DNA from: Phlegmacium glaucopus
Lineage: Eukaryota; Basidiomycota; Agaricomycetes; Agaricales; Cortinariaceae
Length of the DNA stretch: 64,000 nucleotides
Reading direction: 5' to 3'
Assembly (NCBI GenBank): GCA_015039465.1
Contig: MU129998.1
Coordinates: 19,100-83,099 of the forward strand
Below the pieces are notes generated by a model that worked only from the letters and a program-made list of their open reading frames with translations, did not search any database and was not told the DNA's origin. Position numbers and translations under genes: made by a program. Shown one piece after another: positions 378 to 61,230 of the stretch. Position 1 is the stretch's first letter. Every line of letters starts with the position of its first letter.

Positions 378-2621
378 TATCTTTCACCGCTTCGGCGTCT
401 TCCGAGTCGCTTCACCAAGTCACGCCGCACGTTGGCTGCACGGTCATCGACTCATCTAACGATTCTAAGTAATCAATTTTCTTTTATATTTGTACTACTA
501 GCCTTCGTCTCTTGCTTACATTGATTTGTCTACCTGACCCGTTTTTTCTGTCGAATATAATACAAAATAACCAAGTTCTCATTTATCTGAGTCCGATTGT
601 GATTACGTAAAGATCACAAACGTGACCGCTGTGTATTTTTCTGGTATCCAACCACAACACATTTATTACGAGGAGCGATAAGCGCGAACAAGCATACGCT
701 CGAAGACAAAGATAAAAATATCCGACAATCACTCTGCTGCAACACTGACGTTCTAAGAAGCCACACGACACAACACAGGTTACGATACTGTCCAATCTTT
801 GTTCCAGGTATATTGCCAGTACGATCTTACTATGTATCTACGTCCGTCTAATCACAAATATTGACCAGCCCCACCCCCTTTGGTAAAATTCCTCATCCCT
901 CATCTGGCTCTGTACTCCAATTCATGTGGCTTGCACAGAACCGTGCGAGAACTGGGACGAAGATTTCGGGTTCCAACAATCTAAAAGAAGCACTGCACAA
1001 CGATTCGTCCTCCTCGCAGACTACCATCATCTTTGGATGCAGAGGCCGCGAACAAGAGGTCCGAACCATCACTGCGCGGTCCGGTCGTGCCCCACCCAAG
1101 CTGGTCTGCCTCCCACGTCCACGTAGTTCATGTTCTCGCTCAACACCATTCACACGGACGCTTCCACGGCGCCCACGTACCTGACCTCTTTGCCTTCGCC
1201 TCCTTCGTCTGCCGAGCCGGAGGTATGATCGTCTGTGCCTCTTCAAGGACATGCCCCCCTGAAAGTCCGGTGCGCCAGTGCATTGATTGCTAAGCATCGA
1301 AAGCGTCAAGATTGGGGTCTTGAGCGACAGGGAGGTTTCCAAGTGATATGTCAACGGTGTGTATTTTTTTTAAGCAACTTTATAGCTCCTTTTGTGTCTG
1401 TTTTAAAAAAAAGTTGAACTTTGATCCTTGTTTTTCTTTTTTTTTCCGTTCTAATCCATAGGCCTACCGCATCAGCAATCGGGGGTGCCCGTTTGCATTT
1501 TTTTTCGTCACCTCCGAGCACGATCCATTTCTATTCTCATTTTCCTGCTACTTCTATTTCAATTTTCGATGTCATGACCTTCCTGCGTGTCGTCTCTTCG
1601 TTCTCTGAAGCGACGGCCTCGAGGGCTGGCTTTGTGGCCGGTCGAATTTGGCGTTGATATATGTTTTCGTTGTTTTCATAATTTTTTGTACTAATCCTAA
1701 TTTTACTATTTCCTCTTCTATTTTCCGATGGCACGGTCTTCCAGGAGAAGGCAGTCTTCGGCAATCGGATTTCATATCATCTTTCTTTCTTGTATATCTT
1801 ATTTTGTTCGATGAGCAGCGCGCCCAGCCTATGTTTGGCTTATTGCATTCAGTCTCTGCGTTTATGGTCATCTCAACCCTCCCTCGTTGTCTCGCGTCCC
1901 GTTTTGCGGAGCGGTTTGAAGTTTTTCAGTAGCTTACGCTCTTGTCTTTGTCCCTTACACATTTTTGATCCCATCACTTTCCTCGGCGCTTACTACGCCG
2001 AACCCCGTCTCGCACCCGAGCCACCAAGACCGGCAAGTCACTCTCTATTCTCAATCTATGCTCTCTAAGATCTAAATTAGCTCAGATCCATTTGAAGAGT
2101 GCTTATGCGTTAGCACGATTTCAGGAGGCAGAATACGATTTTTTGACAACTTGAAGTTTTCTCCCAGATTCTGGAAGTACGAAGATTCGATTTCGCGCCA
2201 AGTCAGGTATAAATTGCTGATGTGCCTGTTAGTAAATGAATACGTTCAAGCACATTTCCCAAATCAATTCCTCTTATCTTTTACTCTCATCTGCCACTAT
2301 TTACTCATTGATGATAACCTGTTGGCGTCAAACATCAGTCTGGCCAGTCGCGGATAATGATAATAAAAGTACAATTTGTATTTGATGTAGAATTTACATG
2401 ACATATTCTTCCTTGACTACTTCCAAGTGTCAATCATAGCACTGATGGATTCCAACAGTCGAAGGTCAGTAGAGAGAAAGTCTCCTCATTTCCATGTTGC
2501 GGTAGGGGGATTCGAAGCATGCGAGTCATCGATTGGGATGGGATCATTGGCTAAAATGCAATAGATAAATTTTATAGCCATTTTCGCCAGATAAGATACT
2601 TACGGAAGAACTAGATTAAAT
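378..2621. other. Gene-poor stretch, no convincing gene
   Basis: Several overlapping open frames lie between 860 and 2070 on both strands, including an Arg-rich minus-strand one. None shows a domain, a consistent intron pattern or a conserved-looking sequence. Pyrimidine-rich tracts around 1430-1560 and 1680-1990 carry loosely similar phrases (tttcgatgtcatgacctt, ttttgatcccatcacttt), possibly a decayed local repeat. Nothing else is recognised. Confidence 0.4.
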
Positions 2622-3552
2622 TCATGCCAGTGCATTAGAAAAAGGAAACAAAGGAAGCCTAAAACAAAAGAAACACACCACTCCGACAAGTTGGTCAGTA
2701 TTTCCACTGGGGTAAAACAAAAGCCTGTCGCTGGTATAGTTGGCAACAGACGTATCCTTGAGACTATCGATCAAGTTGAAATGGAATACCCCGTTGATAT
2801 CTGCAATATATAGTACACTAAGCGGAGAACGTAAATGAGGATAGAAAAGCTTTCTCACTAATACCGGGCTTTTTGGAATTATCAATGACGTCAAAAGTCG
2901 CCGTTTTGCCAATGGGCTCGAGCGTAAGAGTCACAGTCTTGCTGCCAGTGACCTTGTACATGTTAGCAGAACAGGTGCCAATCTGTTGTTCACCCCAAGT
3001 ACCAGAGCCATTCTGAAGAAGGTTGGTTTCTATGTTGTTCTAAGCAGCCAAAGTTAGAAACGTGTAGGACTCAAATTGATTTTGCGTCGCTCACAGCGTC
3101 CTTGGTCAAGAACTGCGGTACAGAGGTCGTTAGTGAGCGCGAAATGTGGCGAAAAGGATCGACATACAGAAGCGAAGCGGGTTTCACTATCGTCTGCTGT
3201 AGTAAGGAAATCAACGCGAATGGCCATGGGAGTCTCGCTGTTGTAGAAGACATTATAATAGACAGTACCCACCTTGCTGCTTGTATCGCTCAAGGCACTG
3301 TAAAATAATATTCCCTCAGGATCTGCCGATATATGTCAACATTAATATTCTAGGAGGTTTATGAGAATCGATGTTACCTCTTCCAAACGAAATACCGTCA
3401 ACAAATTCTCTCATGATGGAGGTGGCATAGACGCGGAAGCCTTGCTTGTGGTTGTCATCCCAGTAGAATAGTGCAGCGGCAGCACAGCACAGATCAAAGT
3501 CATTGGCTAAGGCAGAGATCTGAGTGGCGTACGTGTCTGTGGTTGATGTCAT
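2622..3552 (-). CDS. Unrecognised short protein, five exons including an 18-nt exon
   Basis: Starts at ATG 3552 (MTSTTDTYATQISALANDF). A GTAACA donor follows FGRG. The second exon reads DPEGILFYSALSDTSSK and then YYNVFYNSETPMAIRVDFLTT, ending at a GTATGT donor after FAS. A 55-nt intron with a CTAAC branch site leads to an 18-nt exon (FLTKDA) between CGCAG and GTGAGC. Next come NNIETNLLQNGSGTWGEQQ and, after a GTGAGA intron, NGVFHFNLIDSLKDTS, with the stop at 2622. Spliced size is about 200 aa. There is no signal peptide, transmembrane segment or recognised domain; the alternating Thr/Val stretch (KVTGSKTVTLTLEP) suggests beta structure. The frame is kept through every splice, which supports a real gene. 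Function unknown. Confidence 0.55.
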
Positions 3553-10351: not shown

Positions 10352-10988
10352 TTAAAATCTAGCTAAGCCCATTATAATTCCAACTCTTTCTGGCAGAAAC
10401 ATTGCCTCCCTTCCCAATTCATAGTATGAGATATCTAGCTCCCCCAACAACCGCTTGTATATCTGCAAGCATTTATCTTGGTTTTCTGTGCTCCGAATAC
10501 CATCATCAACCAACCACTCTGCCACAGGTTTCAGAAGGACTACAATTGACTGCCGATAGCGTTGTAATACTTTCTGAAAGTTGGCAGAGCGTGTGAGATG
10601 ATGCTGCTTCCTTTTAGCTTCTTCTTCGTCGTGTGAGGTAAGAATTGCGTAAACGATAGGGTCGATGGCTGTCCTATCATAGACACGGACGGTGTGCCGG
10701 ACCACGCTCTTCTCTTCAAGGAGTAAATGGGCTTCCATAATGTCCTCTTGCATCTGCAATGAGCTGATGGTGTCTCGTGAATAGCCTTTCATCTTCATAA
10801 CATGCCTTGCAACTTCTGTCACATATGCAGACTCCTCGAGTTCGAGCTTTTGCGCTAAGGCGTTACAAAGTGTCGTTTTCCCTGTTGACTGTCCCTTGAA
10901 TTCAGTCAACAATCATCTAGGTCAACCAATAGCTCACTGATGGTCCGAGGATATAGATTGAAACCGAACGCTCAGGTTTCGCTGCCAT
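10352..10988 (-). CDS. Small P-loop NTPase (AAA_28/NadR-like ATPase)
   Basis: Two exons. Exon 1 (10938-10988) reads MAAKPERSVSIYILGPS; a 49-nt intron (10889-10937) follows, and exon 2 starts at 10888 with STGKTTLCNALAQ. Splicing therefore completes the Walker A motif GPSSTGKTTL, which the unspliced frame lacks; this fixes the start. Further on are VYDRTAIDPIVYAI (a probable Walker B-like or substrate segment, as in NadR/kinase-type ATPases) and RYRQSIVVLLKPVAEWLVDDG. It ends with GLARF. The product is about 196 aa, cytosolic, with no membrane segment. Fungal members of this family have no well-defined role; kinase-like activity on a small molecule is an inference. It shares a 140-bp divergent promoter region with the RdRP-helicase gene. 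Confidence 0.8.
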
Positions 10989-11128: not shown

Positions 11129-14100
11129 ATGAGAGCCTTGAATCTAAGAGTTCCCGCCCTCGACGATGAATCTTGGGAATTCCAAGTTCCTCAAGATGTC
11201 CTTTCCTTTCCTCCAACCCCCAATAAAGTTCACGGCAAAGTTATTTCATTCAGTATCGAAGCTATCACTCTGAGGATCGAACAATTTCCATCCAACCGCA
11301 TCCTAAACTCGGATGATCCCTCAAAGTTTATACTAATGTCATTCAATCGAACGTTTAGGTTCCCTGAACAACCCCCTAAAGTGACGGTGGAATACATCAT
11401 CCGCATGATGAAAAAGGGTTTCTTTCTGAACGGCGTTCAATACCGGTTCTACCATCACAGCAACAGTCAACTGGTATCTCTTTCTAACTATTTCTCGACT
11501 CATACTAAATTTTCATTAAGAGGGGACGATCTTGCTTTCTAAGAGAGGCCAGGTCAGATGCAGAGCTAGACGCTCGAATCTACCGATATGGAGACTTTGA
11601 AAAGATCATGAATGTCGCAAAACGTGAGTTCTTTCTCGAACCTCCTTACAGATAGATCATACATTAAAATACTGTTTAGGCGCAAAACGAATCGGGCTCC
11701 TCTTTTCCTCTGCCCAGATCGACTATCACCTTGATCCAGTATGGATCGATGATATACCCGACATCAAGCTTGGCGATGAAGTTTTCTCAGACGGATGTGG
11801 ATTGATTTCCAAAAGGCTGTCCATTCAATTGAGCCGAGCGAAGAAGATCGTCTTCAGAGGAATTAGGTATACCCCAGTTGTCTTTCAGATCAGGTAAAGC
11901 GAACTACTAGTCTACTATTTGATCAATTCTCATATTGTTATTAGATACCTCGGTTATAAGGGTGTCCTGATGTTACACCCAGAACTTGACAAAACGACTC
12001 GAAAACTCGCTCAGTTTAGGAAAAGTATGAAGAAATTCAATGCAACCATCGATAATACCTTCTCCGTCGTCGGTCATTCAAGGCCTTACTCGTTTGGGAG
12101 ACTGAACAACGATATCATTGTGCTTCTATCCAGTCTTGGCGTCTCAAACGAAAGGCTCATCGCGAAACAAGAAGAATATTTCCAATGGATTGGTGACGCA
12201 TCGAAAGATCCTACGAAAGCTGTCGACTTTTTATCCTGCCTAGACAATTACCCTTTAGCCGAAAAGGTCCTCTTAAATGGCTTAGATGATCCAGGTGTCA
12301 TGAGAGAAATTCGTCGCCTACAATCTTCGGAGGTCTCCAGAGCACGAGATGAGAAGACAAAAAAATACAAATCGCGCATGATGATCCACAAATCTCGTCG
12401 GCTTTTCGGCGTTTGCGATCCATTCCAGGTTTTAAAGGAGGGACAGGTACATATTCGTATCACTGCTTCTCGAAAGGGGCCTGCAACGCCTATCCATGGC
12501 GATGTCATCATCATTCGGAATCCCTGCCTCCATCCTGGTAAGAGAAACAACTAAATTCTGAAGTCGATATATGAGTTGTTGACTATAGTATAGGCGACTG
12601 TTTGAAATTACGTGCAGTCGATCATCCTAAGCTCTCTCATTTGGTAGATTGTCTCGTCTTTGCGAGCGTGGCGCGGCCAGGTCACAAGGCGGCCCCCTCT
12701 ATGAGCAGTGGCGGAGACCTTGATGGTAATATCGCATTTTACACGACTTGAAGTATGGTTAATATCCCTTCAAAGGCGATGAATTCTTCGTATGCTGGGA
12801 TAAAGACATCATTCCTAGCCATGTTTTAGAGGTGACTTTCGTATTCTTTTGCCGAATATCTCACTCAAAAGCTTCGGATCGATAGTCCTACGATTATCCC
12901 GGTAATAGAGAGTTTAACAAGCCTAAGGTTACACGAGACGACCTTGTCCAACATTTTGCATCCTATAGCGGGTAATATTTCTATGTCTTGATCTACCACT
13001 TTTCATTCACGTCGCCGACTCTTTTAGTGCTGGCGTAGCACGAGTTTCTGTGCTTCACGCGAAGTGGGCACGTAGTAGCCCTGAAGGTGCTCTTTCTGTT
13101 CAATGTCAAGAATTGAATGCTCTACACTCTCAATGTGTCGATGGAGCCAACATCAAAATCCCTGATAAGCTAGCGGCACCACCAGAACAAAAAGAGCCTT
13201 TTATTCTTGATCTATTGGAACAAGCCTGCGACGAATTTTCGACTCGTTTCGCTGAATCAGCATCTCGCCGAACGGAAATCTTAACTATAGATCAACTGGA
13301 GGGGGAAAGACTTCTAAGTCAACTCTTGAAGAGTAGTCAAAGTGCTTTATCGGAATATGAGCTCTTCAACCTGGCTTACCGTTTGGCAACCAAATATTCC
13401 ATTGATATTCGTTCATATCTGGCACAAATCGACATGTCTGCTCTGACTGCAGCCGAGAAACACACGATTACCGCCACTCTATCCCTCTCTGCAGTGGATT
13501 ATCCATATATCTGGAATTCGTTGGTACGATCTGATATTCTCACACCTAGAGACCTCTATCAAAGGAATCTAAATCATCCGTTTGCTCTGCATCGACTGTA
13601 TTCTTCTCGCATCAACGGATTAGCTACTTTCTTTCAATTCCTGAGAATGGCTACTCAAGATTATACGAGGAAATTGCTGATCTTGCAGGTGTGTTCAGAG
13701 TTCGATTCTGGGTAAATCTTCCTGTCTCAACGTACATTTCAGACGGATCCTAGGTTTGCAGTTGGTGTTTTCATGCGAGGTGACATACCCTGGGACGAAG
13801 ATCCAGAGGTCAATGAGAACGTCGTAGTTTGTTCGTTCATGCCCAAAACATCCTCGATGGCTACTCTTCGACCATGCACGACAGGTTACAGGCTTTATTG
13901 TGGCGATGCTAGGCTTCAACTGTATAATAAACAGATACAAGACACCTTCATCTTCATAAAGCGACCACCTTCTAATTCCGGATTCGAATTATCGACTAGT
14001 ATCGCATTGCAAAAAATAACAGCTAAAGTACAAATGGTGACGATCTCTTTCATACTCAAGACGCGATTATCCCTAACAATTGTGATATCGAATCCATAAT

Positions 14101-17024
14101 AGCAACTTGGTCGGGTTCTGGGAACTCCAGTGACTGCAGCCGAATTGCATGTTGTGTCCAATCGTGACCGCGTTGCACATCAATTATTTGATCTATGGTT
14201 CGAACAGTATGTCCTTTTTTCATGGGATTTAGATGATCTCGTCTCACCGGAAACTAGCGTTCCAACGGAAGAGCACATTCGACGGTTCCAACGCAAACCC
14301 GTTCCTTATCGTCTTAATGACATTCAAGATGTTGACTGGCGCAAGCACTCGGATCCTTGGATGGAGGGTGCATTCTATCGCTACCCCGGTCAAACAATCA
14401 AGTTAATACAGCAAAAACATACCGCGGAGACGATGCAACAGTATCTCTCGGAAAGAACCATGCCGGAAATTGACCAAATTATGGCTTTTGCTATACAATA
14501 TCACGCAGAGGACGAGATTTTCCTCATCTTCGCTCATGTCATTAGTCAGCAACCGCTTTCGCAGGAATTTGCAACGACCTGGACTGAGCGATACCCCCCG
14601 TTGACATTTGCTCTCCTGAAAAGCTATCCGCCTGATGAAGAAGCTCAAGCTCATCCCGATATCGCGTCTCTCATACACCACATTGCACGCAATATCATCC
14701 GATCTGCCAACGACACCCGCATTGCTGCTCTAGTTGCATTAGAAAAGCTGGCGAAGTCTATTGGAACGATGGAACTTGATCAATATATTGATATCCTCAT
14801 GTTAACCGCTCTATCGGTGCGCTCTAAACAACTTGTCCAGGAAGTTCTACTGGTGCTGAACGATTGTCGGTTACAACACTCGCCCAAGTCAGCAGCAGCA
14901 ACTTACGGGCACAAGCACGCACTAGGCGTCGTTTTCGATCGAGCCGAAGAGGCTGCCGATGAATGTCCTTGCAACGATGATGGTCGACCCCGGAAAAAGC
15001 AGGGGGCACCACCGTCCCATGCGAAACTTACCCCTGGCCCTGATTATCTGGAAAATGGACAAGTCGTTGCGACTATTCGAATTGACGCAAAAACCAACAT
15101 TCGGTTGCATTCCCACGTTAGACTACAGGCAGCATCAAAGGCGGAGAACCGTTGGCTTGAGGCGCCAATCATGGATGGGGTTGTTACTCAGGCATCGAAA
15201 GGCGAATTGAAAATCAATATTTTCCACCCCGGACCACCTGAGATGGAAGCAATGGATTGGAATATCTACGATGCTGGAAGTATTGGTGTGTTTTCCGATT
15301 AGCGTTCCCGAGTACATATAATTTATCTATTTCCATCCTCTCTTTCAGCTACCACCAATGCGATGATAGATGCACTGAAGCGTTTATTAACTGATCGAGA
15401 AGGCTGTTGCATGTTTTATAATGCTGTTGTTTGTGAGGAAGGGCCTTCGATTCTCGAAAATATTGAGCCACCGCCGGAATCTACCACTCCTGCACCCGAC
15501 GGGTTAAACGAAAGTCAACTAATGGCCATGAACTCATGGCGATCACCTCTCTCTTTAATCTGGGGACCTCCAGGTAAGAACATATTCATCGCTTTCTTTC
15601 CATTTGAGTTTGATGGTCGCCACTGCAAATCAGGAACAGGAAAGACCACCGTCATGGTACAAATCCTCCGCGATATTATTAAGAGCTATTCCGATAATGT
15701 GCCCAAAATTCTTATGACTGCTTCAACACACAACGGTATTTACTTGAACGCTTCTTCCCTTCAGTGAAATGATATCTTGGCTGCTTTTAGCTGTCGACAA
15801 CGTTTTGGAACGCTTTATCAAAATAAACGCGGAAGAAGGACTACTCCTTGAGGAGCAAGTTCTGCGGGTTGCTACTGACGTTGCTAAAGTCAATCAGTCC
15901 CTCCAGAATTATACAATCAATGCGCGCGTTGGTGGTGATATGAATGAGAACAACAAACTCTTTAAGCAAGCACAAGATCGCGTTGAGAAAGCTAAATTAG
16001 TCTTTACCACCTGTGCAGGTATGAGTTTAACTTCATCAGTTCAGTTGAGATCGATCGCTCAGGCGAGAAATTTTGATATTTGGTCCAACTGTAGGAGCTG
16101 GGCTGGGCATTCTAAGGAAAGTGGACTTCGAGATCGCTCTAATAGACGAAGCCTCTCAAATTACGGAGCCTTGTGCACTTATCCCTTTGGTCAAGGGAAT
16201 AACCAGAGCCGTCGTCGTAGGAGATCAGTGAGTAACTTGTATTTTATTCCAGGCTATTGGCGGTCCTAACCTATCCCAGTGTGCAACTTCGCCCAACAGT
16301 AAGGAACATGGCAAAAGCGTTGGAATACGACGTTTCTCTCCTAGAGAGACTCTACACCTCAGGATCTGATGCTAGCGGAATGGAAAAAACGATGCTGGAC
16401 GTCCAATATCGCTCGCCGCGGGAGCTTAATGAATTCCCTTCGAAGGAATTTTACGAGAATAGGCTAAAAACCAGCGATGGAAATGCGGAAGTTGCTAATT
16501 TCCTAGCGCTGTCCAAATTCCCTTGGCCAATCAGAAATGGGACCATCATTCCAACAGTCTTCGTTCAATGCGGAGACGAAGAAGACATGGGTTCTCGCTC
16601 TAAAAGCAATGAAGGACAAGTGAAGGTCGTCCACGAGCTGCTGCCTCTCTTGTCATCACAAAGCCCTGATAAACCTCAAGAACCGAAATTATCCGATATC
16701 AAAATTACTGTTCTTTCACCGTATACAAAACAAATTCAAGCGCTCCGTCACCGTTTACCATCATCGGTAACATGTTCTACGATTGATTCTTTCCAAGGTC
16801 GAGAGAGCGACATCATAATATTTTCTACCGTGCGATGTAACGTGGAAGGTGACGTTGGATTCCTCGACGATCCAAGAAGACTGAATGTGATGTGGACGCG
16901 AGCACGTTTGGCCTTGATCATAGTCGGGGACCGAAAAACGATGAGTGGAAACCAGTTGTGGAAGCGTGCCTTGGATGCTTGCACAGAGGTAGTCCTTCCA
17001 GTGGATCCGCCAGTTGACGCATAG
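11129..17024 (+). CDS. RNA-dependent RNA polymerase fused to SF1 UPF1-type helicase
   Basis: An RdRP of the eukaryotic QDE-1/RDR family makes dsRNA for RNA silencing; here it is joined to a helicase. Fifteen exons sum to 5,100 nt (1,699 aa). Exon ends are 11473, 11623, 11893, 12537, 12725, 12831, 12971, 13688, 14036, 15285, 15573, 15735, 16018, 16227 and 17024. The RdRP part has SNSQLRGRSCFLREA (near 115) and the catalytic SGGDLDGDEFFVCWD (near 460). The helicase part has GPPGTGKT (near 1297), THNAVDN (Ia), DEASQ (II, near 1424), GDHVQLRP (III), DSFQGRESD (V) and NVMWTRARLALIIVGD (VI). All main motifs are present, so both halves look active. The RdRP N-terminus is short for the family because the divergent gene begins 140 bp upstream. 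The fusion rests on a clean GTGTGT...TTTCAG intron at 15286-15348. Two separate transcripts remain possible. Confidence 0.88.
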
Positions 17025-48702: not shown

Positions 48703-51700
48703 ATGAAGTTGAAGGAAATACATAGGACCTCCACATTTGCCTGGTCGCCATTTGCGTCTCTTCCTTTGCTGGCCACGGGGACTGTAGCAGGGGCCCTTGA
48801 CGAGTCCTTTAGCAACGAAAGTCAGCTTGAAATCTGGGCGCCGGACTTCCTTGATAGGGACGAGTTTTATCTGGGAGTAGAGGGTCAACATGGGCCCAAA
48901 GGACAAGTTACAGATACTGCCAGGTTCGTTGGCTTTGCGCTGGTAAAGATTTGTCGATATTATGGACTAACAGCCCTACAGGTTTAACCGTTTGGCATGG
49001 GGTCATGTCGATGCGAATCGCCCACACGGTGTTATTGCTGCTGGTCTCGAGAATGGTGAGCTGGCGTTGTGGGATCCTGCAAAAATTTTAGCGGGCGCTG
49101 GGTGTGTTGTCAGCCTATTTTGATCATGTCACCACAGTTCTAACACAGCCCGTTCTGTAGTACTTCTCAATCGCTCATTTTGCGAAATACAACACATACG
49201 GGCCCGGTTCGGGGGTTGGATTTCAATCCTATTCAAACCAATTTACTTGCTTCCGGTGGTATTAATGGCGAGGTAAGAGAACGACGTTGTCAATTCAAAA
49301 GCAACCCTGATCCTCTTCTACAGGTTTACATCTGGGACCTAAAGGACCCTAGCAAGCCCTATTCGCCAACCCCCGGTGCAAGGAGCACAAAACTGGATGA
49401 AATTACGTCCGTCGCCTGGAATCAGCAGGTTCAGTACGTACTCGCTGGTGCCAGCAGCACAGGCTATACTGTCGTATGGGACTTACGAGGAAAACGAGAA
49501 GTTGTTGCTCTGGCGTACGGTGGTGGAGCTGGGACATTGGCTGGTCAAGTTGGTTCTGGAACCGGGATGGCCGTTGGAGGTAGACGTGGGATGAGTGACA
49601 TCGCTTGGCATCCCGACAATGTAAGCCTTTGATCCCTTGCGCATATGTTTATTCTTAAGGAGATGTAGGCCACGAGAGTTGTCACGGCGTCTGAAGATGA
49701 CTCGTCTCCGATTATCATGGTTTGGGATTTACGCAACGCTCGAGCACCAGAAAAAGTTAGGCATTAATTCACGCTTTGTTGATCCTTATGCTAACAAAAA
49801 GTCATAATAGATACTGACCGGACACGAAAAAGGTGTCCTCTCCCTCTCTTGGTGTAAACAGGATGCAGACTTGTTACTCTCCTGCGGTAAAGACAACCGT
49901 GCTCTCTGCTGGAACCCTCAGACTTCCGAGGTTATTGGAGAAGTAAGTTGGTATATGGATGTTTATCCAAGTCGTTGACGCTGATTGTGAGCCACGTAGC
50001 TTCCTTCAGCCGACAATTGGGCTTTTCAGGTGGATTGGTGCCCTCGCAACCCTGATATGCTAGCTACTGCCTTTTTCGACGGCACAGTTGGTATCCATTC
50101 CCTACAATCGACGAATGAGCTTCCCGGATATCCTAAAGATGCTGTCACTCGCCCTGACGGTGCCGATATCTTCGATGCGCCAAGCTTTTCTGGTCAATCT
50201 CAATCAGGAACGCTCTCCCTCAAACAACCGCCAAAATGGCTTCGTCGACCAGCCTCCAGTTCCTTTGGCTTTGGCGGGAAGCTCGTTACAGTTTCCAACC
50301 TCGCTTCGTCGCAAGGGAAGCCTCAGAGCAGCGTTGTACATATCCGTAAAGTGGTCACGGAAACAGAATTGGTGAAGCGCGCGAAGCAGCTCCAAGCGGC
50401 TATTGATGGGGACAACTTGCAATCATTTGCTGAAGAGAGGATGGAAGGAGAAGGATGGAAAGCCTTGTTGAGTCTTTTCAAGGCTAATTCAAGAGACGAG
50501 CTGGTTACGCTCTTAGGGTTCTCCAAGTCCGAGATCGCCTCACGTGTGGCGGAGGCCGTTGAGAACCTCAAATCATCCGCAGAGGCTAAATCACCATTTG
50601 ACGATCAAGCTGCCGTTTACAAGCCCCATGAATCTGTTGTCTCTTTCGCTGAACCTGAGCGCGAGGAGCTTCAAAGTGATCCGGAGGAAGACGAGTCACC
50701 ACCTGCCGCTGTTTCTGAGGAGAAAACCCCGTCTGAAGTCAGTGCCGGCGTCACTTCTGACACAGCCAGTGCAGCTCTACCAACAGACGGCGAGTCCACT
50801 ACCACAGCGCCAAGTTTATTCGGAGATGACATTCCAGGAACACCGCAAGTTGATGCTGGACATGATTTCTTCAATACCGTTGGAGTAGCGCAGGACGATG
50901 GCGAATCGCACCCTGTTCACGTTCCCCATACGAACTATGGTTTGGATTCTTCAGTTGCGGCCACCATCGGATCGGGTCCCTCCTCTGTCACGTCAGAATC
51001 TGCGAAAAGCAATGGTTTTAGGATTTACCCTGGTGAAGAGTCTGATGTTGATCGATTAGTCACCAAGGCGCTCGTTCTTGGCGATTTTGACTCTGCGGTC
51101 GCCTTATGCCTCTCCTCTGATCGATTTGCGGATGCCATTCTCCTGGCTGTTCGCGGCGGTCCTGAGCTCCTCCAACGCACTCAAAAGGCTTACTTCGAAC
51201 GCCGAACAACCTCTTTACCATCTCTTCGGCTCTTCCAGTCCATCGTCACCAACGACTTGAGCGATATCGTGCAGAACGCAGACCTCCAAGAATGGCGTGA
51301 AATCTTCGTTGTACTCTGTACCTTCGCTTCTCAGGACGAGTTTTCAACTTTGGCGGAACAGCTGGGCAGGCGGCTTGAGTATGAGTTCACCGTTGCTCAA
51401 GGATCTGACGATCAAGAAGCAGAGTTCTATAGGAAAAATGCTATCCTGACATACCTTGCTGCTGCCCGCTTGGAGAGGCTCGTAAGCATCTGGGCTGATG
51501 AACTGGTTGAGGAGGAGAAGGCACGAGTTTCCAACGAGAAGCAACAGAACGACTCTTCTTACTCCGCCCATGCCCATGCGTTGCAAACCTTCGTGGAGAA
51601 AGTTACCGTTTTCCGCGCTGCTACTAACTACAAGGACCAGGCGTTGACTCAACCATCGGCTAATGGCGACGAGTCGACTCAAACATTCAAGTTGGCAGCT

Positions 51701-53553
51701 TTATACGACCGCTACTTTGAGTATGCGGATATCTTATGCTCGCAGGGATTAGTGAAGGATGCTGTCAGATTCTTGCAGTTAACACCCAGTGGTTATAAGG
51801 GTTCGGTATCTAGCTCAGATTTTAGTTCAGAACGAAAGAGAGTGATCGATGCTACCACAACGTCGACTACCCCTGCTTCAGCTCCTTCTGTGATCACGAC
51901 TTCGACGACTACTGCCCCTAGAGTCCCTGCTGCCGTTACTTTGACTTCTACTGCCAGGCCTACAGGTTACGGTATCGGATACACAGAACCCGTCCAGCCT
52001 ATCGTCCCTCAACAGCAGCAGTCTAAGAAGTACGCCCCTTACGACACTCCATCCATGAGCACCACCAATGCATACAGTCAGCCTGCTCAACAAGTTCAAC
52101 AAGTTCAACAGTCCCAGCAGCAACCTCACTATGGTCACGCCAATACATCTACCTACGCAGGTCATTACAACGCCCCTAATGCCTTGGCTCAACCACCTCA
52201 CCTTCGTCAACATCAGCAGCCACCAGCGCCAACACATCTTGCTCCTCCTCGTGCAGCCAATGGACCACCGCCCCCACCAAAGCGAGACAATGGAGGCTGG
52301 AATGATGCTCCGGCTAGTCTCCCTCCGCCCAGCCGTGTTCCAGCTGCGCTACCCTTGAACAAGCCACCACCCATCACGTCTCCTTTCCCAAACGCAGCTC
52401 CTTCTCCTGGTTATTCCCCGCAGCCCTCGCCATACCTAAGTCAAGGCTCGGCTACACTTCCTCCTCCGCCTAGACCAGGAAGTGTCGCACGCGGACAGGC
52501 GCCTCCTACTCAAGGCCCACCTCCAGGTCATAGATTGCCTCCACAAGGACCTTCAGGATCCTTCCCAGTTCGACCTCCATCACAAAATGTTGGACCTGTG
52601 GCTGCTCCTCCTTCTCGTATTCTATCGCCTCCGCAAGGTCAACCTTCCTTACCTCAACGAGAACCTACACCAAGCCAGTATGCAGCTCCACCTTCACGAG
52701 GACCTGCTTTAGGACAAACCCCGCCACCTGGTCCTGGTCAATTCCAACGTCCTCCTTCGGGTCAACCTTATGCGCAAGTCACTTCACCACAAGCTCCAAG
52801 TTATGGATCTGGTCCAATGGCGTCATTTGTGGCCCCTCAGCAACAACAACCAGGCCCTTACGGTCCTCCTCAAGGAATTCAACTACAACAGCAACGTCTA
52901 GCTCCTTCTCAGCCTCCGCCACCTCATCAAGGTGGACCTCCAGTTCTACCTGGCGGCCCTGGCGGCCCTGGAGGACCCCCACGAGCAGCCTCTAGAAGTG
53001 CTGCTGCTCCACCAGTCCGTGCACCCCCTGCGCCTCCTAAATATCGTAAGTTGTAAATCATCGGCCGACAATGCGTTAGCTAAGCTTTCTTGAATACCTT
53101 TTTCAGCGGCTGGCGATCGAAGCCACATTCCTGATCACGTCCGACCTGCGTATGAAATAATTTCTGAAAACCTTCACCGGATTAAGCAGATCACCCCTGT
53201 AAGATCTTCTCTTACACTTGATTTTTTTTGTTTGGCTGATTTGTGTGGATCTCATTAGGGTAATCAGCGACTGGTAGATGATCTCGAACGTCGAATCAAT
53301 CCATTATTCGACGCTTTGAACTGTGACACTCTCTCAAAGCCTGTCGTCGATCAGCTGCTCGTGCTTACCAAAGGTGTGATCTCTCATTTTCTATCCAAAT
53401 CTGTTCTAACTGATCAATCTCGGAGCAGCAATGGAAAGCCGTGACCGTCCCGCTGCGTTGGCCATTCATGTTGACCTTCTTACTCGTGGATCGCAGACGG
53501 ATGATATCGGTTTATGGATGTCTGGGATCAAGCAACTGATCTTACGACTATGA
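48703..53553 (+). CDS. SEC31: COPII outer-coat protein Sec31
   Basis: Sec31 pairs with Sec13 to form the outer cage of COPII vesicles leaving the ER. The start at 48703 gives [18 protein letters not shown], the usual Sec31 opening, then [12 protein letters not shown]40 repeats run over the first 350 residues ([76 protein letters not shown]). The large exon 50030-53055 holds [20 protein letters not shown], the alpha-solenoid ([20 protein letters not shown]) and a long Pro/Gln-rich linker that activates Sar1-Sec23 in other species. After two short introns the C-terminal helical domain reads [17 protein letters not shown] and [13 protein letters not shown], ending at 53553. About 1,400 aa and nine or ten exons. 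Intact. Confidence 0.95.
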
Positions 53554-56377: not shown

Positions 56378-58120
56378 CTACATGGTATAGCGAGTGAAAG
56401 TCTCCATGACGGGGGTACCTTGAATGTAGGGAGCGATGATAACTGCATGTTGCCGTAAGTAAAGGACAAATGACTCGCTAGACCAGCGACCGATGGACTT
56501 AACAACGTCAAAAGGTATCCCACGTAGGAGATATTCTAACGTCGCGCCAATGCGAATACCATGGCCTTTTAGAGACGGGATGCCTAACTCGGCCGCTGCT
56601 AAGTTGATCCGTCTTAAGAACTCAGTGCGAGTCAGAGGGCAGACACCTTGAGGGTGTCTCCATGCAAAGAGGGGGTCATGAGCAGAGAGAGTGTTGACCG
56701 TGAAGTGATTTGCGAGAGCAGCTAGAGGATCGGACGGGCCAACTTGTGCAGCCCAATAGACATCTTCACCGGTAGCTGTAGTCTTTGTCCGAGGCAGATG
56801 GAAGACGGAAACTCGAAATCCATGGCGATCCTCATCGTGACGGACGTCAGAAGGTTTGACGTGGAGAGCTGAGTCGAAGGCTTTGAGAGAAGCAACAGTG
56901 AACTCACCGAGGCGTGCAGCCGAATAGAATGTGGTTGTGAGGCAAGCATACACCGCGGCGTCTAGGGGCATGGATAAATCGAGCCTCCCAGCAATAGAGA
57001 CGATAACGGGGAGGGTCAAGGGAAGGCGCTTTGGCCTTTTGGAGGCTGGGGGGGCAAGTATAGTCGCTCCGTCGAGAGCTGCCTTCATCTCAGCAGAGTT
57101 CATCCTCCACGGAGCACCATGTAGAACATGCCATGCCCGTACTGCATAAAAATAGTTGGCAAGGGTTTTACCGGAGTAAGAACCTGCACAACTCGATATA
57201 AAAGTCAGCATGAGCAAAGGATCAGCAGGACAGCATTGGGGCTCAGCGATGTTTCTCTGGTCACAAAACACGTGAAAGACGAGTAAACCGGCTCCATATG
57301 TCTCGCGAGTAGTAGGCTGCCAGGACGTATTGATAACGGTGATGACGCGGTCGAGATCTGCATCAGTTATCTCAAGATTGAGGCCATCCACATGGAGGTC
57401 AGACCTTGAGAAAATGGGCGTCCAGAGTCTTAAACGATCCCGAGCTGGACAGTGAGGACGAAGCTCTGAAATTAAGGGGATAAGGTCATTCTGATATTTG
57501 TGAGGCCTGACCGATGAAGTCAAAGGGCTATCAAGCGGCGTCGAGAAACGTGAAGAGAGATGAGCAGGGAGGGTGGTATTAACTGTAATAGCTGTTGTGG
57601 TCATAGGACGAGGCAGTGGGGTGTTCGTCGGAATGACGGCTTGAGATAGCGTCAGCAATGCGCTTTGCGAGAGGTGGGGGATATCGACCTTCCCTGAAGA
57701 GCCTGAGCTCAGTAGGGGTGTATGGACACGTGGCATCAACAATGAACCTGTCGAGATCAGGTGAGAACTGGATCTCTGGTAACAGGAGGTCGACTGGGGG
57801 GTAGATTCCCCTCGAAGGGCCATCGGCCGGGTTGGATTCACTGGGAACATATGCTGAATAGATGGAGATGGCGCCACTGAAGTCCTCAAGAAAGGAGTGT
57901 ATCCTCCGGAATACACCGTTAATGGTTCTGCTCCTACTCCTGTGGTTCTTCCATCCCTCGACGACTCCGATGTTGTCGCTGTGGACCTTAAAGTGTCCGC
58001 TAGAACCAATAAGCCGTGGGATGGTCCTGACGAGTAGCTCAAACCCAACGGCCTCGGCCCAGCCGATGTCTCTGCTGCCGTCGAGTCTGCCAGCCGGGAA
58101 TGAGATGCCACGCTCGCCAC
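56378..58120 (-). CDS. Tyrosine recombinase of DIRS-like element 2, 3' end altered by element B
   Basis: A long open frame whose first 180 codons overlap the RNase H frame; the recombinase itself probably starts at an internal Met (MTTTAITVNTTLPAHL). It shows WQPTTRETYGAGLLVFHVFC (core-binding), FYSAARLGEFTVASL (catalytic Arg), LPRTKTTATGEDVYWA, LKGHGIRIGATLEYLL (His-x-x-Arg) and IGRWSSESFVLYLRQHA (Trp and Tyr). All catalytic residues are present. The C-terminus now ends RYTM because element B supplies a TAG; without it the frame would continue PPPR to a stop at 54317. Confidence 0.8.
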   Translation of the reverse strand: MASVASHSRLADSTAAETSAGPRPLGLSYSSGPSHGLLVLADTLRSTATTSESSRDGRTTGVGAEPLTVYSGGYTPFLRTSVAPSPSIQHMFPVNPTRPMALRGESTPQSTSCYQRSSSHLISTGSLLMPRVHTPLLSSGSSGKVDIPHLSQSALLTLSQAVIPTNTPLPRPMTTTAITVNTTLPAHLSSRFSTPLDSPLTSSVRPHKYQNDLIPLISELRPHCPARDRLRLWTPIFSRSDLHVDGLNLEITDADLDRVITVINTSWQPTTRETYGAGLLVFHVFCDQRNIAEPQCCPADPLLMLTFISSCAGSYSGKTLANYFYAVRAWHVLHGAPWRMNSAEMKAALDGATILAPPASKRPKRLPLTLPVIVSIAGRLDLSMPLDAAVYACLTTTFYSAARLGEFTVASLKAFDSALHVKPSDVRHDEDRHGFRVSVFHLPRTKTTATGEDVYWAAQVGPSDPLAALANHFTVNTLSAHDPLFAWRHPQGVCPLTRTEFLRRINLAAAELGIPSLKGHGIRIGATLEYLLRGIPFDVVKSIGRWSSESFVLYLRQHAVIIAPYIQGTPVMETFTRYTM

Positions 58121-59793
58121 CTTCCGTCGATGACAATGCCGATACCGACTCCGGAGCTGGCATCTGAGAATGCTTTAGGGTCAACAAGACTGTGAGGGGA
58201 GGGAATAGGTCTGGAGACAGATGGACGGGCGAGTCTAGAGGACCACCACAGCAAGTCGTCGTTGACTCCTTTGATAGGCGAGTAAGCGACAAAGGGACGG
58301 TTATTACATAATCGAAGCATAGCTTCCAGCCCGGTGAGGTAAGCCCGGCCCATTGTAATAACAAGACATGCATGGAGTAGCTTACCATATAACTTCTGTA
58401 CATCATGTAGAACATGGTTTGGTGTGCGAAACCACTCCTCGATGTTGACAATATACTTGACTCTCTTCTCAGCGCTGAGGGACACAGTGAGAGACTGTAG
58501 ATCCCATTGGAGACCAATGTAAGCTGCAGAGAAGGAGAAGGGAACGTCTTTGGAACGTTCCCAGGGAATTCCGAGCTCGTCTGACAAGTGGTCAATGTCA
58601 CAGAAACTATAGGCATACTGTCGATCTTCGTCGGAGCGAGGAGAGCTAACCGATAGGTCACAACAGGGAAACTGACAGTCCTCGACATGTTCGTCGAGCG
58701 TACCGTCTGGGAAAGTGTCTCCACCGTACCAAAGACAACCTCCGTCTTGTTGCTGACCATGTAATGAGAGGTGTGAGTGTCGAGCATCACGCTGACGGTT
58801 GTACTCGTGAAGGTATGTAAGAAGGATGCGAAAGAATGCATGGTCGTCAACCCATTTGACCAAAGGGCCAATCCCCTGGTGTCTGAAGAGGTCCGTTCCA
58901 GCGTCGGCAACAACACCATAAACTCCAGATGAGGGTGAGACTCCAAAACAGGTAGCCAAATCGAGACAGAAAATGTCTTCTCCGATCTGTGCCACTGCCC
59001 CGGGCCATTGAGACGAGTGTAAAGGAATGGTGTGATAGGCTTCTGCAACATTGTGAGTGGCCATTTGAGAGTTTGGAGGAAGCTGATGAATGAGCAAGGC
59101 GACGATTGAGAAGGTACCCCAAGTCGTTGGAAAATCGTTGGAATCGACGAATGAATTAATGGAAGGGTTGGGATATAAGGCGGAGATATTATGAGGGAAG
59201 GAATAATTTTGTAGAATACGAAAGCAATTAGGCCTTCCAGGCTTTGGGATAATGGAAAAGGGGGAAGATTGGAAGGGGCCAACGAGAGCCTCGACTTCCT
59301 CTCGGTTGAGGGGTCCGAGATAGCGCTGTTTGGCGATCTCAAGGTCGACGATCTTATCGAATTGCTCTGCGAGGTCAGATATTGAAGTCTTATTAGGGGG
59401 GGTTTGGGTCTGAGTAATTCTGGGAATATTAAGGGTAAAGCCTGTCCGGAGGCTCTGGGGAAGGTGTGGGTACTTTTTGAGTAAGCCTGCTTTAGACAAA
59501 AGAAACTCCCAGGCATCCGGCTTATAGGGAGTGAGAGCTTGCAATTTTCTGAGCTTGAGGGCACTCCTGAGTGCCGTGAGACGAGGAAGCGCACCCGGAG
59601 CAGAGATGACGGTTGTCGTGACGAGAGCTGGAACAACTGACTGCTCGTTGCCAGTCTGCGCAGACTGGCCGGCCGTCTCGCATTGAAAGGGTCTTGTTGA
59701 TTCGGATTGAGAGAGTGGGGAACGAGTCGTCCCATAACGACGGCGAGCTGCAGTCGACGATCTTGTGTGGGTGACGGCCAAGGCAGACGGCAC
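57579..59793 (-). pseudogene. Reverse transcriptase-RNase H of DIRS-like element 2
   Basis: From 59793 the frame runs to 58039: LRSALKLRKLQALTPYKPDA, AKQRYLGPLNREEVEALVG, PFSIIPKPGRPNCFRILQNY, motif A region THNVAEAYHTIPLHSSQW, CFGVSPSSGVYGVVAD and LVKWVDDHAFFRIL (catalytic box, WVDD). RNase H starts KAFSDASSGVGIGIVIDGRW; after WHLIPGW the rest continues in another frame: DGSRDIGWAEAVGFELL, FKVHSDNIGVVEGWKN and SESNPADGPSRG, to 57579. One missing base near 58085-58100 explains the shift. In motif A an Asn stands where the metal-binding Asp is expected (codon 59050-59052). Confidence 0.8.
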
Positions 59794-59824
59794 AAGCGGA
59801 ATAGACCCTTCCGGGAGTGCTTGG

Positions 59825-61189
59825 TCAGAAATCCGACTTCTTTCCCTGAGTGGGCTTGTCAGGCAGAGGTTGTCTCATGGTAGAAGAGTGACGGGCTGGG
59901 GATACAGAGCGACGGCAAGACTCGCGAGAAACATCATGATTCCCTGATCTTCGTTGTGGAAGAGAGACGGGAGCCATTCCTCGACAGTCAGACTGGTCTG
60001 ATACAGCCGTGTATATACCAACACGAGTAGGAGATAGCAGGCGTGCAGGAGCAACAGATAGGCGTGCGATACGCAACAGATAGGCATGCATGGAGCAGGA
60101 GATGGGCGATGTGTAGCAATAGGGATATGCATGGGGGAAGGAACGGCATGCATGTAGCAAAAGATAGGCGTGCATGTCGCAACAGAGGTTGTATGTGGGG
60201 CAGGGGATGAAGATGAAAGAGACGAAGATAACATGGTCAAAAACAAGGCAAAGGAAACTTTTAGTCTCGTCTTTTACAGAAGGAAGATAGAGGATAGACG
60301 CACAATCTCTCTCGTTATCTTTCAGCCTATGATCATCCCAGTAAACGATCTCGCGAGTCTTACGAATAATTTCTTCATTGATTCGAGAGAGGTTATAAGC
60401 ACCGCGGGGAGAGGAAATAGCGAGGTGCCAGAGCCTCCTTTGTTCGGCTTGGTAGACAATAAGGACCCTTTGATCAAGGGGATCCCTAGATGACCGGAGC
60501 TCGTGAACCTGTAAGTTTCCCCAGAACTTGGCCAACATGGTCACACGGTCTTGTGGCCAGTCGGCTTCCTCCATGGCGACGATCATTCGGGGCGCTGCCT
60601 GACAAAAATCTTCCCATGAGATGTCTTTGTCGTCAATTACTGCCGATGCGGTCTTGGCAGACACTGCAGGAACCCAAGAAGTTACGTTGTTGGGTTGTCG
60701 AAGCATCACCATTGCCTCGTCATCTGTCGTGTTAGAGGTGCGAAAGGCTTCGTCTAGACCAGCGTTAGTATAGTACCAGAGTTCGACGTAAAGTCCTTTT
60801 TCCATCTTTCTAATTGCGTAGTTGGAAGCAATAACTGGAGCTATTGTCGGAACGTCTCTATCAGGGATCGGGATGTACTTCATTTTATTCCTCTTCATTT
60901 CTTCTTTTCGAAGGTTCTCCTCATCATCAATTGAGGCCTGTACCCTTAAGACGTCTGCTTCTGATTGTAACCAACGGCGTTCCGTGAGATCGGCCGCATC
61001 ATCAACGTTTTGTTGTTGCCACCTAACATTATCAGCTTCGTTACCGGCATGCCAGATGTCTTTTAAGAATTGGATGGCCTGGTCTTCGGTGGTATTAGGG
61101 TTGACGAATGGGGCACGGGCTGCAGCATAAACCGGGGAAGCAAAGTCAGGGCATTCTGACAGGGCTGGGTCAAACTGAAGTCTTGGCAT
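59825..61189 (-). CDS. Gag-like protein of DIRS-like element 2
   Basis: Starts MPRLQFDPALSECPDFASPV. A charged helical stretch (EADVLRVQASIDDEENLRKE) suggests a coiled coil; then WEDFCQAAPRMIVAMEEADW, then WGNLQVHELRSSRDPLDQRV. Around residue 320 a minisatellite-coded segment (60040-60190) begins, rich in Cys/His/Tyr by accident, and may be a spliced intron between ILYLPS and the tail SDQSDCRGMAPVSL. The tail is Ser/Arg rich. It packages the element RNA by analogy with other Gags; there is no clear zinc knuckle. The RT frame starts 32 bases downstream. Confidence 0.6.
   Translation of the reverse strand: MPRLQFDPALSECPDFASPVYAAARAPFVNPNTTEDQAIQFLKDIWHAGNEADNVRWQQQNVDDAADLTERRWLQSEADVLRVQASIDDEENLRKEEMKRNKMKYIPIPDRDVPTIAPVIASNYAIRKMEKGLYVELWYYTNAGLDEAFRTSNTTDDEAMVMLRQPNNVTSWVPAVSAKTASAVIDDKDISWEDFCQAAPRMIVAMEEADWPQDRVTMLAKFWGNLQVHELRSSRDPLDQRVLIVYQAEQRRLWHLAISSPRGAYNLSRINEEIIRKTREIVYWDDHRLKDNERDCASILYLPSVKDETKSFLCLVFDHVIFVSFIFIPCPTYNLCCDMHAYLLLHACRSFPHAYPYCYTSPISCSMHAYLLRIARLSVAPARLLSPTRVGIYTAVSDQSDCRGMAPVSLPQRRSGNHDVSRESCRRSVSPARHSSTMRQPLPDKPTQGKKSDF
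60040..60190. repeat. Minisatellite in the Gag gene of DIRS-like element 2
   Basis: Repeated phrases gcaacagataggcgtgc, gcatgcatg(ga/ta)gcaa and similar, with 4-5 diverged units. Like the intron minisatellite of element 1, it sits in a probable intron. Confidence 0.6.
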
Positions 61190-61230
61190 TATTGCGAAGT
61201 ACTTGGCTTATTTTAAAAAATTATGCTTGT

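What the first reader, a model, noticed from the sequence alone, without database searches (positions are those of the whole stretch)
11129..17024. RdRP and UPF1-type helicase in one polypeptide
Fifteen exons give one frame of exactly 5,100 nt containing both the RdRP catalytic DLDGD box and a complete set of SF1 helicase motifs (GPPGTGKT, DEASQ, GDHVQLRP, DSFQGRESD, motif VI). In Neurospora SAD-1 with SAD-3, and in fission yeast Rdp1 with Hrr1, the polymerase and a helicase of this kind are separate proteins acting together. A natural fusion would fix their stoichiometry and suggests the helicase feeds template strands directly to the polymerase. I do not know whether this fusion has been described.
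Basis: partly seen in the sequence, partly recalled or inferred. Interest (0 to 1): 0.88.

Follow-up and report, generated by a model that had tools for sequence, protein, structure and literature searches.

The report
Fused RNA polymerase and UPF1-like helicase
A mushroom gene appears to make one protein that joins an RNA-copying enzyme of gene silencing to an RNA-unwinding motor; the join is old and shared by mushrooms and moulds, and a version of it is already known in the wheat fungus Fusarium.

Summary
In detail: 15 exons, 14 GT-AG introns, 5,100 nt, 1,699 aa, with an RdRP domain and a complete SF1 helicase. A false join of two genes is very unlikely. The helicase fold begins inside exon 10, which also codes for the RdRP side, and 3 of 120 homologous models break at the doubted intron. 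Against this, Tephrocybe is annotated as two adjacent genes split exactly there.

The fusion is not new. Fusarium FgRdRp5 (FGSG_09076) is a full-length homologue (35% identity, 940 bits), described in 2015 and 2024 (PMC4515635, PMC11237814). Its deletion lowers exonic siRNAs and ascospore discharge. Fusions occur across Agaricomycetes and Pezizomycotina. Trees of both halves show the same Ascomycota/Basidiomycota split, so the join probably predates it.

The helicase is not the SAD-3/Hrr1 type. It forms its own clade near UPF1, and this genome keeps a separate ZNFX1/SAD-3-like gene. Template feeding sits badly with the 5'-to-3' polarity of UPF1-like motors (recalled). I prefer a motor that clears bound proteins and carries the polymerase to the 3' end; that step is untested.

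The parts
11129..17024 (+). whole coding region, 15 exons, 5,100 nt CDS, 1,699 aa RdRP-helicase
   Evidence: spliced model; full-length homologues
11288..13160 (+). RdRP domain (PF05183), aa 54-554
   Evidence: E 1.3e-99; coordinates
12710..12786 (+). GGDLDGDEF catalytic box (split by intron 5, 12726-12775)
14103..15285 (+). exon 10 (aa 829-1223): open across the join of RdRP side and helicase side
14355..14840 (+). helical linker region, about aa 913-1074, between RdRP side and helicase
   Evidence: model of Aspergillus homologue P0169, residues 442 to about 600, mapped by alignment and offset
14841..15285 (+). start of helicase fold: stalk and beta domain 1B, from about aa 1075-1093 to 1223
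   Evidence: the alignment starts at model residue 600-618 in 13 of the 14 listed UPF1/IGHMBP2 rows (575 in one); beta strands at model 649-706; mapping and offset
   Evidence: in-frame stop if retained; 3 of 120 homologous models break here
15357..17021 (+). SF1 helicase core alignable to UPF1 from aa 1226
15564..15647 (+). Walker A GPPGTGKT, split after GPPG by intron 11 (15574-15633)
16145..16159 (+). motif II DEASQ
16220..16295 (+). motif III GDHVQLRP (split by intron 14)
16785..16805 (+). motif V DSFQGRE
16878..16907 (+). motif VI region (aa 1652-1661, NVMWTRA from aa 1654)

Best explanation
A member of an old Dikarya class of RNA-silencing polymerases, the FgRdRp5 class: one protein with an RdRP half, a helical linker and a C-terminal SF1 helicase from a clade near UPF1. 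Shown by sequence: one open frame, both sets of catalytic motifs, colinear homologues in Ascomycota and Basidiomycota, and the same deep split in both halves. Shown elsewhere for the Fusarium member: deletion lowers exonic siRNAs and ascospore discharge. Inferred: the RdRP half makes complementary RNA from single-stranded transcripts for Dicer. Inferred: the helicase moves 5' to 3' on the target RNA, strips bound proteins and carries the polymerase towards the 3' end, where copying starts. My own odds: identity 0.95, RNA-silencing role 0.75, this particular job for the helicase 0.35.
For: Gene model and domains. Full-length match to FGSG_09076: 35% over 6-1699 / 15-1717, 940 bits. Distribution. 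Helicase tree: 25 fusion rows one clade 99/99, Ascomycota 12 rows 99/99, Basidiomycota 13 rows 99/97. RdRP-half tree: 11 rows 96/94 and 12 rows 98/99. DLDGD kept in 87 of 93 and 75 of 77 long models, exact Walker A in 72 of 93 and 76 of 77. Spacing from DLDGD to Walker A: median 822 and 832 aa in models with all six motifs (54 and 55 models); 835 here. PDB: RdRP half nearest the RDR entries (187-198 bits) against QDE-1 (53-55 bits); helicase half nearest UPF1/NAM7 by sequence and UPF1/IGHMBP2 by structure. Fusarium genetics read in passages of PMC11237814.
Against: The Fusarium deletion has the mildest siRNA loss of the three tested (about 32% against about 70% and 80%), so the class may not be a core silencing enzyme. 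Ribosome-biogenesis genes are also affected there. Three species have gene models that end or start at intron 10. I saw no biochemistry for either half. The polarity argument rests on recalled UPF1 knowledge. No RNA evidence for this locus was available.
Confidence: 0.6

Rival explanations
1. The helicase works: it opens folded RNA and feeds the template strand directly into the polymerase of the same molecule.
For: Both active sites conserved in one chain in most long models; similar spacing between them; SAD-3 and Hrr1 as silencing helicases in other fungi (passages of PMC11237814 and PMC5384783).
Against: UPF1-like motors run 5' to 3' (recalled), while a polymerase travels towards the 5' end of its template; pulling the same strand, the two oppose each other. 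It could still work if the motor tracks the other strand. The helicase is not nearest to the SAD-3/ZNFX1 type.
Confidence: 0.2
2. The fused helicase mainly serves mRNA surveillance: it marks aberrant transcripts in a UPF1-like way and the attached polymerase turns them into double-stranded RNA.
For: Nearest solved relatives are UPF1/NAM7 and IGHMBP2; the Fusarium paper reports a predicted interaction network with NAM7 and nonsense-mediated decay factors.
Against: No UPF1 zinc-binding (CH) domain family among the Pfam matches; two ordinary UPF1 genes exist in this genome; the Fusarium network is a prediction.
Confidence: 0.2
3. Two adjacent genes wrongly joined by the gene model.
For: UPF1 homology as detected by sequence starts at aa 1226, next to the end of exon 10. 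Tephrocybe has two consecutive locus tags (P0089, ending at aa 1220; P0128, starting at aa 1229), Mycena capillaripes P0088 ends at aa 1225, and Mycena chlorophos P0133 starts at aa 1222.
Against: The helicase fold starts inside exon 10, so such an RdRP gene would end with an orphan helicase domain 1B; P0088, P0089 and P0133 end or start with what look like intron residues. 3 of 120 models break at intron 10; 23 of the 27 models under 1,480 aa run past the join to the GPP of Walker A. Fusion models in two phyla.
Confidence: 0.04

Closest known systems
FgRdRp5 (FGSG_09076), Fusarium graminearum
   Same: RdRP followed by a C-terminal DEAD-like/AAA helicase at 1277-1677 (PMC11237814, passages), colinear along the whole length, 35% identity; in the fusion clade of both trees
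   Different: Ascomycete; 1,721 aa; its genetics are known, this gene's are not
SAD-1 with SAD-3 (Neurospora), Rdp1 with Hrr1 (fission yeast), RnhA (Mucor)
   Same: An RdRP and a helicase act in RNA silencing (PMC5384783, PMC7763443, passages)
   Different: Separate proteins; helicase of the ZNFX1-like family (family link recalled; RnhA has an NF-X1 zinc finger); here the helicase is nearer UPF1 and a ZNFX1-like gene exists separately
UPF1/NAM7 and IGHMBP2 (SMUBP-2)
   Different: No RdRP; the fused helicases form a separate clade; no UPF1 zinc-binding family among the Pfam matches here
Dictyostelium RrpA, RrpB, RrpC
   Same: Helicase and RdRP domain in one protein (PMC3661229, passages)
   Different: Helicase lies before the RdRP (from the construct description); it is a Dicer-like SF2 helicase (recalled), so an independent fusion

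Membership tests
FgRdRp5-type RdRP-helicase | RdRP domain with DLDGD box | tested here: met
FgRdRp5-type RdRP-helicase | C-terminal SF1 helicase with complete motifs in the same spliced frame | tested here: met
   (by sequence; no RNA data)
FgRdRp5-type RdRP-helicase | end-to-end homology to FGSG_09076 | tested here: met
   35% over 6-1699 / 15-1717, 940 bits
FgRdRp5-type RdRP-helicase | role in exonic siRNA formation | not testable with these tools
   known to me only for Fusarium
SAD-3/Hrr1/ZNFX1 helicases | helicase core nearest to ZNFX1 among solved structures by sequence | tested here: not met
   UPF1/NAM7 164-173 bits, SEN1/SETX-type 127-144, SMUBP-2 119, DNA2 106, ZNFX1 82; (FGSG_09076): 177-183, 126-137, 150, 124, 100. 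SAD-3 and Hrr1 sequences themselves were not at hand
UPF1 (nonsense-mediated decay) | groups with UPF1 in a tree | tested here: not met
   five UPF1 rows form their own clade 100/99, the 25 fusion rows another 99/99
UPF1 (nonsense-mediated decay) | zinc-binding CH domain | tested here: not met
   not among the 7 Pfam families at E 0.001 or better; PF09416 is listed for UPF1 hits P0214, P0215, P0216 and P0218
QDE-1-type RdRP | RdRP half nearest to QDE-1 among solved structures | tested here: not met
   RDR entries 187-198 bits, QDE-1 53-55 bits

The most novel reading that the evidence does not exclude
A fourth, overlooked class of fungal silencing polymerase, as old as the Ascomycota/Basidiomycota split, in which a UPF1-related motor clears a transcript and delivers the polymerase to its 3' end. 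In mushrooms an intron that cuts the Walker A motif, followed by an exon of 102 nt that can be skipped in frame, could also yield helicase-dead or RdRP-only forms.
Probability: 0.2. Interest if true: 0.75.

Novelty: new member of a known kind. Interest (0 to 1): 0.42.

Why it matters
A protein with a polymerase and its own motor in one chain gives a direct way to ask what the helicase does in small-RNA amplification: one point mutation in the motor leaves the polymerase in place. The class spans Agaricomycetes and Pezizomycotina, yet in the passages I read the helicase half was noted only in Fusarium. The Neurospora and fission-yeast models work with separate helicases, so they may have hidden it.

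Tried and rejected
Considered and set aside: (1) two genes wrongly joined (but see Tephrocybe and two Mycena models). (2) A SAD-3/Hrr1 helicase captured by the RdRP. (3) A recent fusion private to this mushroom. (4) A UPF1 orthologue.

Led nowhere: the first structure job, of metagenome fragment P0121 without an alignment, gave pLDDT 34 and was not used. The first RdRP tree held four own-genome fragments (L032, L033, L036, L037) and left the fusion groups weakly supported (62/99 and 44/0). I dropped those four rows, took a longer cut and a stricter column filter, and support rose. Three further own-genome RdRP loci (L034, L035, L038) gave too little sequence for the tree. No search of the helical linker alone was made, so its fold is open. 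SEN1, DNA2, L030 and ZNFX1-like rows have long branches (2.2-5.5), so their places are unsure. In one search, 380 of 450 gap runs of 8 or more residues lay at no intron position, so gaps are also made by divergence and alignment. Not tested: Pucciniomycotina, Ustilaginomycotina, Tremellomycetes, Mucoromycota, Neurospora, fission yeast. The two protein lists show only the best 120 of 584 and 120 of 166, so absence from them means nothing. Paper searches (all ten; word matching only) gave me no description in mushrooms; two mushroom papers, in the passages seen, describe their RdRPs only as holding the RdRP domain. The library lacks most subscription journals. One table (PMC6764512, passage) files FgRdRp5 under the SAD1 entry, against the separate branch of PMC11237814. 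In one search my motif VI pattern was too strict; one search corrects it.
Full report
WHAT IS THERE. Fifteen exons with 14 GT-AG introns run from 11129 to 17024 on the plus strand and give 5,100 nt with the stop, 1,699 aa. Pfam finds RdRP at aa 54-554 (E 1.3e-99), AAA_12 at 1468-1670 (E 2.8e-46) and AAA_11 (E 7.3e-39). The catalytic DLDGD box and SF1 motifs I, II, III, V and VI are present. Eleven of 14 introns would put a stop in frame if retained; introns 1, 11 and 13 would not. The splice pattern is a prediction; no RNA data were at hand.

WHERE ELSE. One search found 584 homologues and listed 120. Of these, 93 are at least 1,480 aa; DLDGD stands in 87, the exact Walker A in 72, motif II in 81, III in 84, V in 89, VI in 89. 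By the species names they come from Agaricales, Boletales, Polyporales, Russulales, Hymenochaetales, Auriculariales, Cantharellales and Sebacinales (lineages looked up only for Serendipita and Rhizoctonia; the rest recalled). A second search started from three ascomycete proteins found (alignment A1). It found 166 and listed 120: 77 of these are at least 1,480 aa, with DLDGD in 75, Walker A in 76, II in 76, III in 72, V in 73, VI in 61. They include Eurotiomycetes, Sordariomycetes, Leotiomycetes, Dothideomycetes, Lecanoromycetes, Pezizomycetes and, by a shorter model that starts at aa 496 (P0158), Orbiliomycetes (looked up for Letrouitia, Ascobolus and Dactylella; rest recalled). Spacing from DLDGD to Walker A has a median of 822 and 832 aa in the 54 and 55 models with all six motifs, 835 here.

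ONE ORIGIN OR SEVERAL. In a tree of the helicase halves (40 rows, 415 columns) the 25 fusion rows form one clade (99/99) with Ascomycota (12 rows, 99/99) and Basidiomycota (13 rows, 99/97) apart. UPF1 (5 rows), IGHMBP2-like (6 rows) and own-genome SEN1, DNA2, L030 and ZNFX1-like rows lie outside; the last four have long branches. In a tree of the RdRP halves (25 rows, 894 columns, RDR outgroup) Ascomycota (11 rows, 96/94) and Basidiomycota (12 rows, 98/99) again separate. A first RdRP tree with own-genome fragments left these groups weak (62/99 and 44/0); I dropped four fragments. The simplest reading is one fusion before the two phyla parted, passed down as a unit. Transfer between phyla early on is not excluded.

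ALREADY KNOWN. One search returned FGSG_09076 of Fusarium graminearum (P0268). It aligns to this protein over 6-1699 / 15-1717 at 35% identity, 940 bits. PMC4515635 (2015; [quoted passage not shown] PMC11237814 (2024; passages) gives them as 1277-1478 and 1475-1677, puts the protein on a branch apart from SAD-1, QDE-1 and RRP-3, and reports for the deletion ascospore discharge of 47.6% of wild type, abnormal ascospores, and about 32% fewer 21-25-nt 5'-U reads (about 70% and 80% for the other two polymerases). The authors say they will explore whether the helicase domain matters. PMC4870495 (abstract and passages) lists FgRdRp5 among predicted targets of virus-derived siRNAs and calls it closer to Arabidopsis RDR2 and RDR6; a table in PMC6764512 (passage) files it under SAD1 instead. 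A figure legend for F. fujikuroi names RdRP, DEAD and AAA domains without saying which protein holds which (PMC11130915). My ten paper searches gave no paper that remarks on the fusion in mushrooms, in a library that lacks most subscription journals.

HOW IT LIKELY WORKS. The RdRP half is nearer the RDR entries (plant enzymes, recalled) than QDE-1 (187-198 against 53-55 bits). It should copy single-stranded RNA into double-stranded RNA for Dicer; the Fusarium deletion agrees. UPF1-like motors move 5' to 3' (recalled). A polymerase moves towards the 5' end of its template, so a motor on the same strand would pull against it. I therefore prefer a model in which the motor moves along the transcript to its 3' end, strips proteins, and brings the polymerase to where primer-free copying starts. 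Tracking of the opposite strand, and release of product, are other options. All of this is inference.

SCORE. Very probably real, old and conserved, but already described in one fungus. New here, as far as I could see: its spread across Dikarya, the same history of both halves, the UPF1-like and not SAD-3-like motor, and the join inside one exon. Interest 0.42.

Noticed in passing
15574-15633 (intron 11) and 15634-15735 (exon 12), and homologous models: An intron cuts the Walker A motif after GPPG. 25 of 120 homologous models break there, more than at any other intron (next 12 each at introns 8 and 13). In 11 of them (8 genera) the gap is exactly the stretch of exon 12, which is 102 nt and can be skipped in frame; others end in read-through residues. 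Copied annotation errors, or helicase-dead isoforms; here the intron is 60 nt, in frame, without a stop.
   Followed up: partly
P0089 and P0128 (Tephrocybe), P0088, P0133 (Mycena): Gene models that end or start at the intron-10 position: Tephrocybe's two have consecutive locus tags.
   Followed up: partly
L024 (G000:C131:9500-18500): Two very similar UPF1 genes lie in opposite directions within 9 kb.
   Followed up: partly
L026 (G000:C35:84500-91000), about 2349-2973 minus strand: A decayed fragment of the fused helicase's C-terminal part, 53% identical over its best stretch to this protein, with internal stops; no RdRP part found in the locus.
   Followed up: partly
L028 (G000:C148:877500-883500): Separate ZNFX1/SAD-3-like helicase gene in the same genome.
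   Followed up: yes
10355-10912, minus strand: Open frame with an AAA_28 match (E 1.5e-16), on the opposite strand about 217 nt upstream of the fusion gene: a possible shared promoter region.
   Followed up: no
50000-53056 plus; 56378-61207 minus: Long open frames (1,018 aa; overlapping 598, 759, 611 and 460 aa). The 1,018-, 598-, 759- and 460-aa frames were scanned: no Pfam family over its cut-off.
   Followed up: no
P0115, P0238: Unnamed-source proteins of 1,720 and 1,754 aa whose longest contigs are only 5,416 and 5,483 nt: their size suggests spliced transcripts covering the whole fusion.
   Followed up: no
P0152: A record named Salix suchowensis (willow) carries a mushroom-type helicase half (matches aa 1093-1610): probably fungal contamination of a plant assembly.
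   Followed up: no
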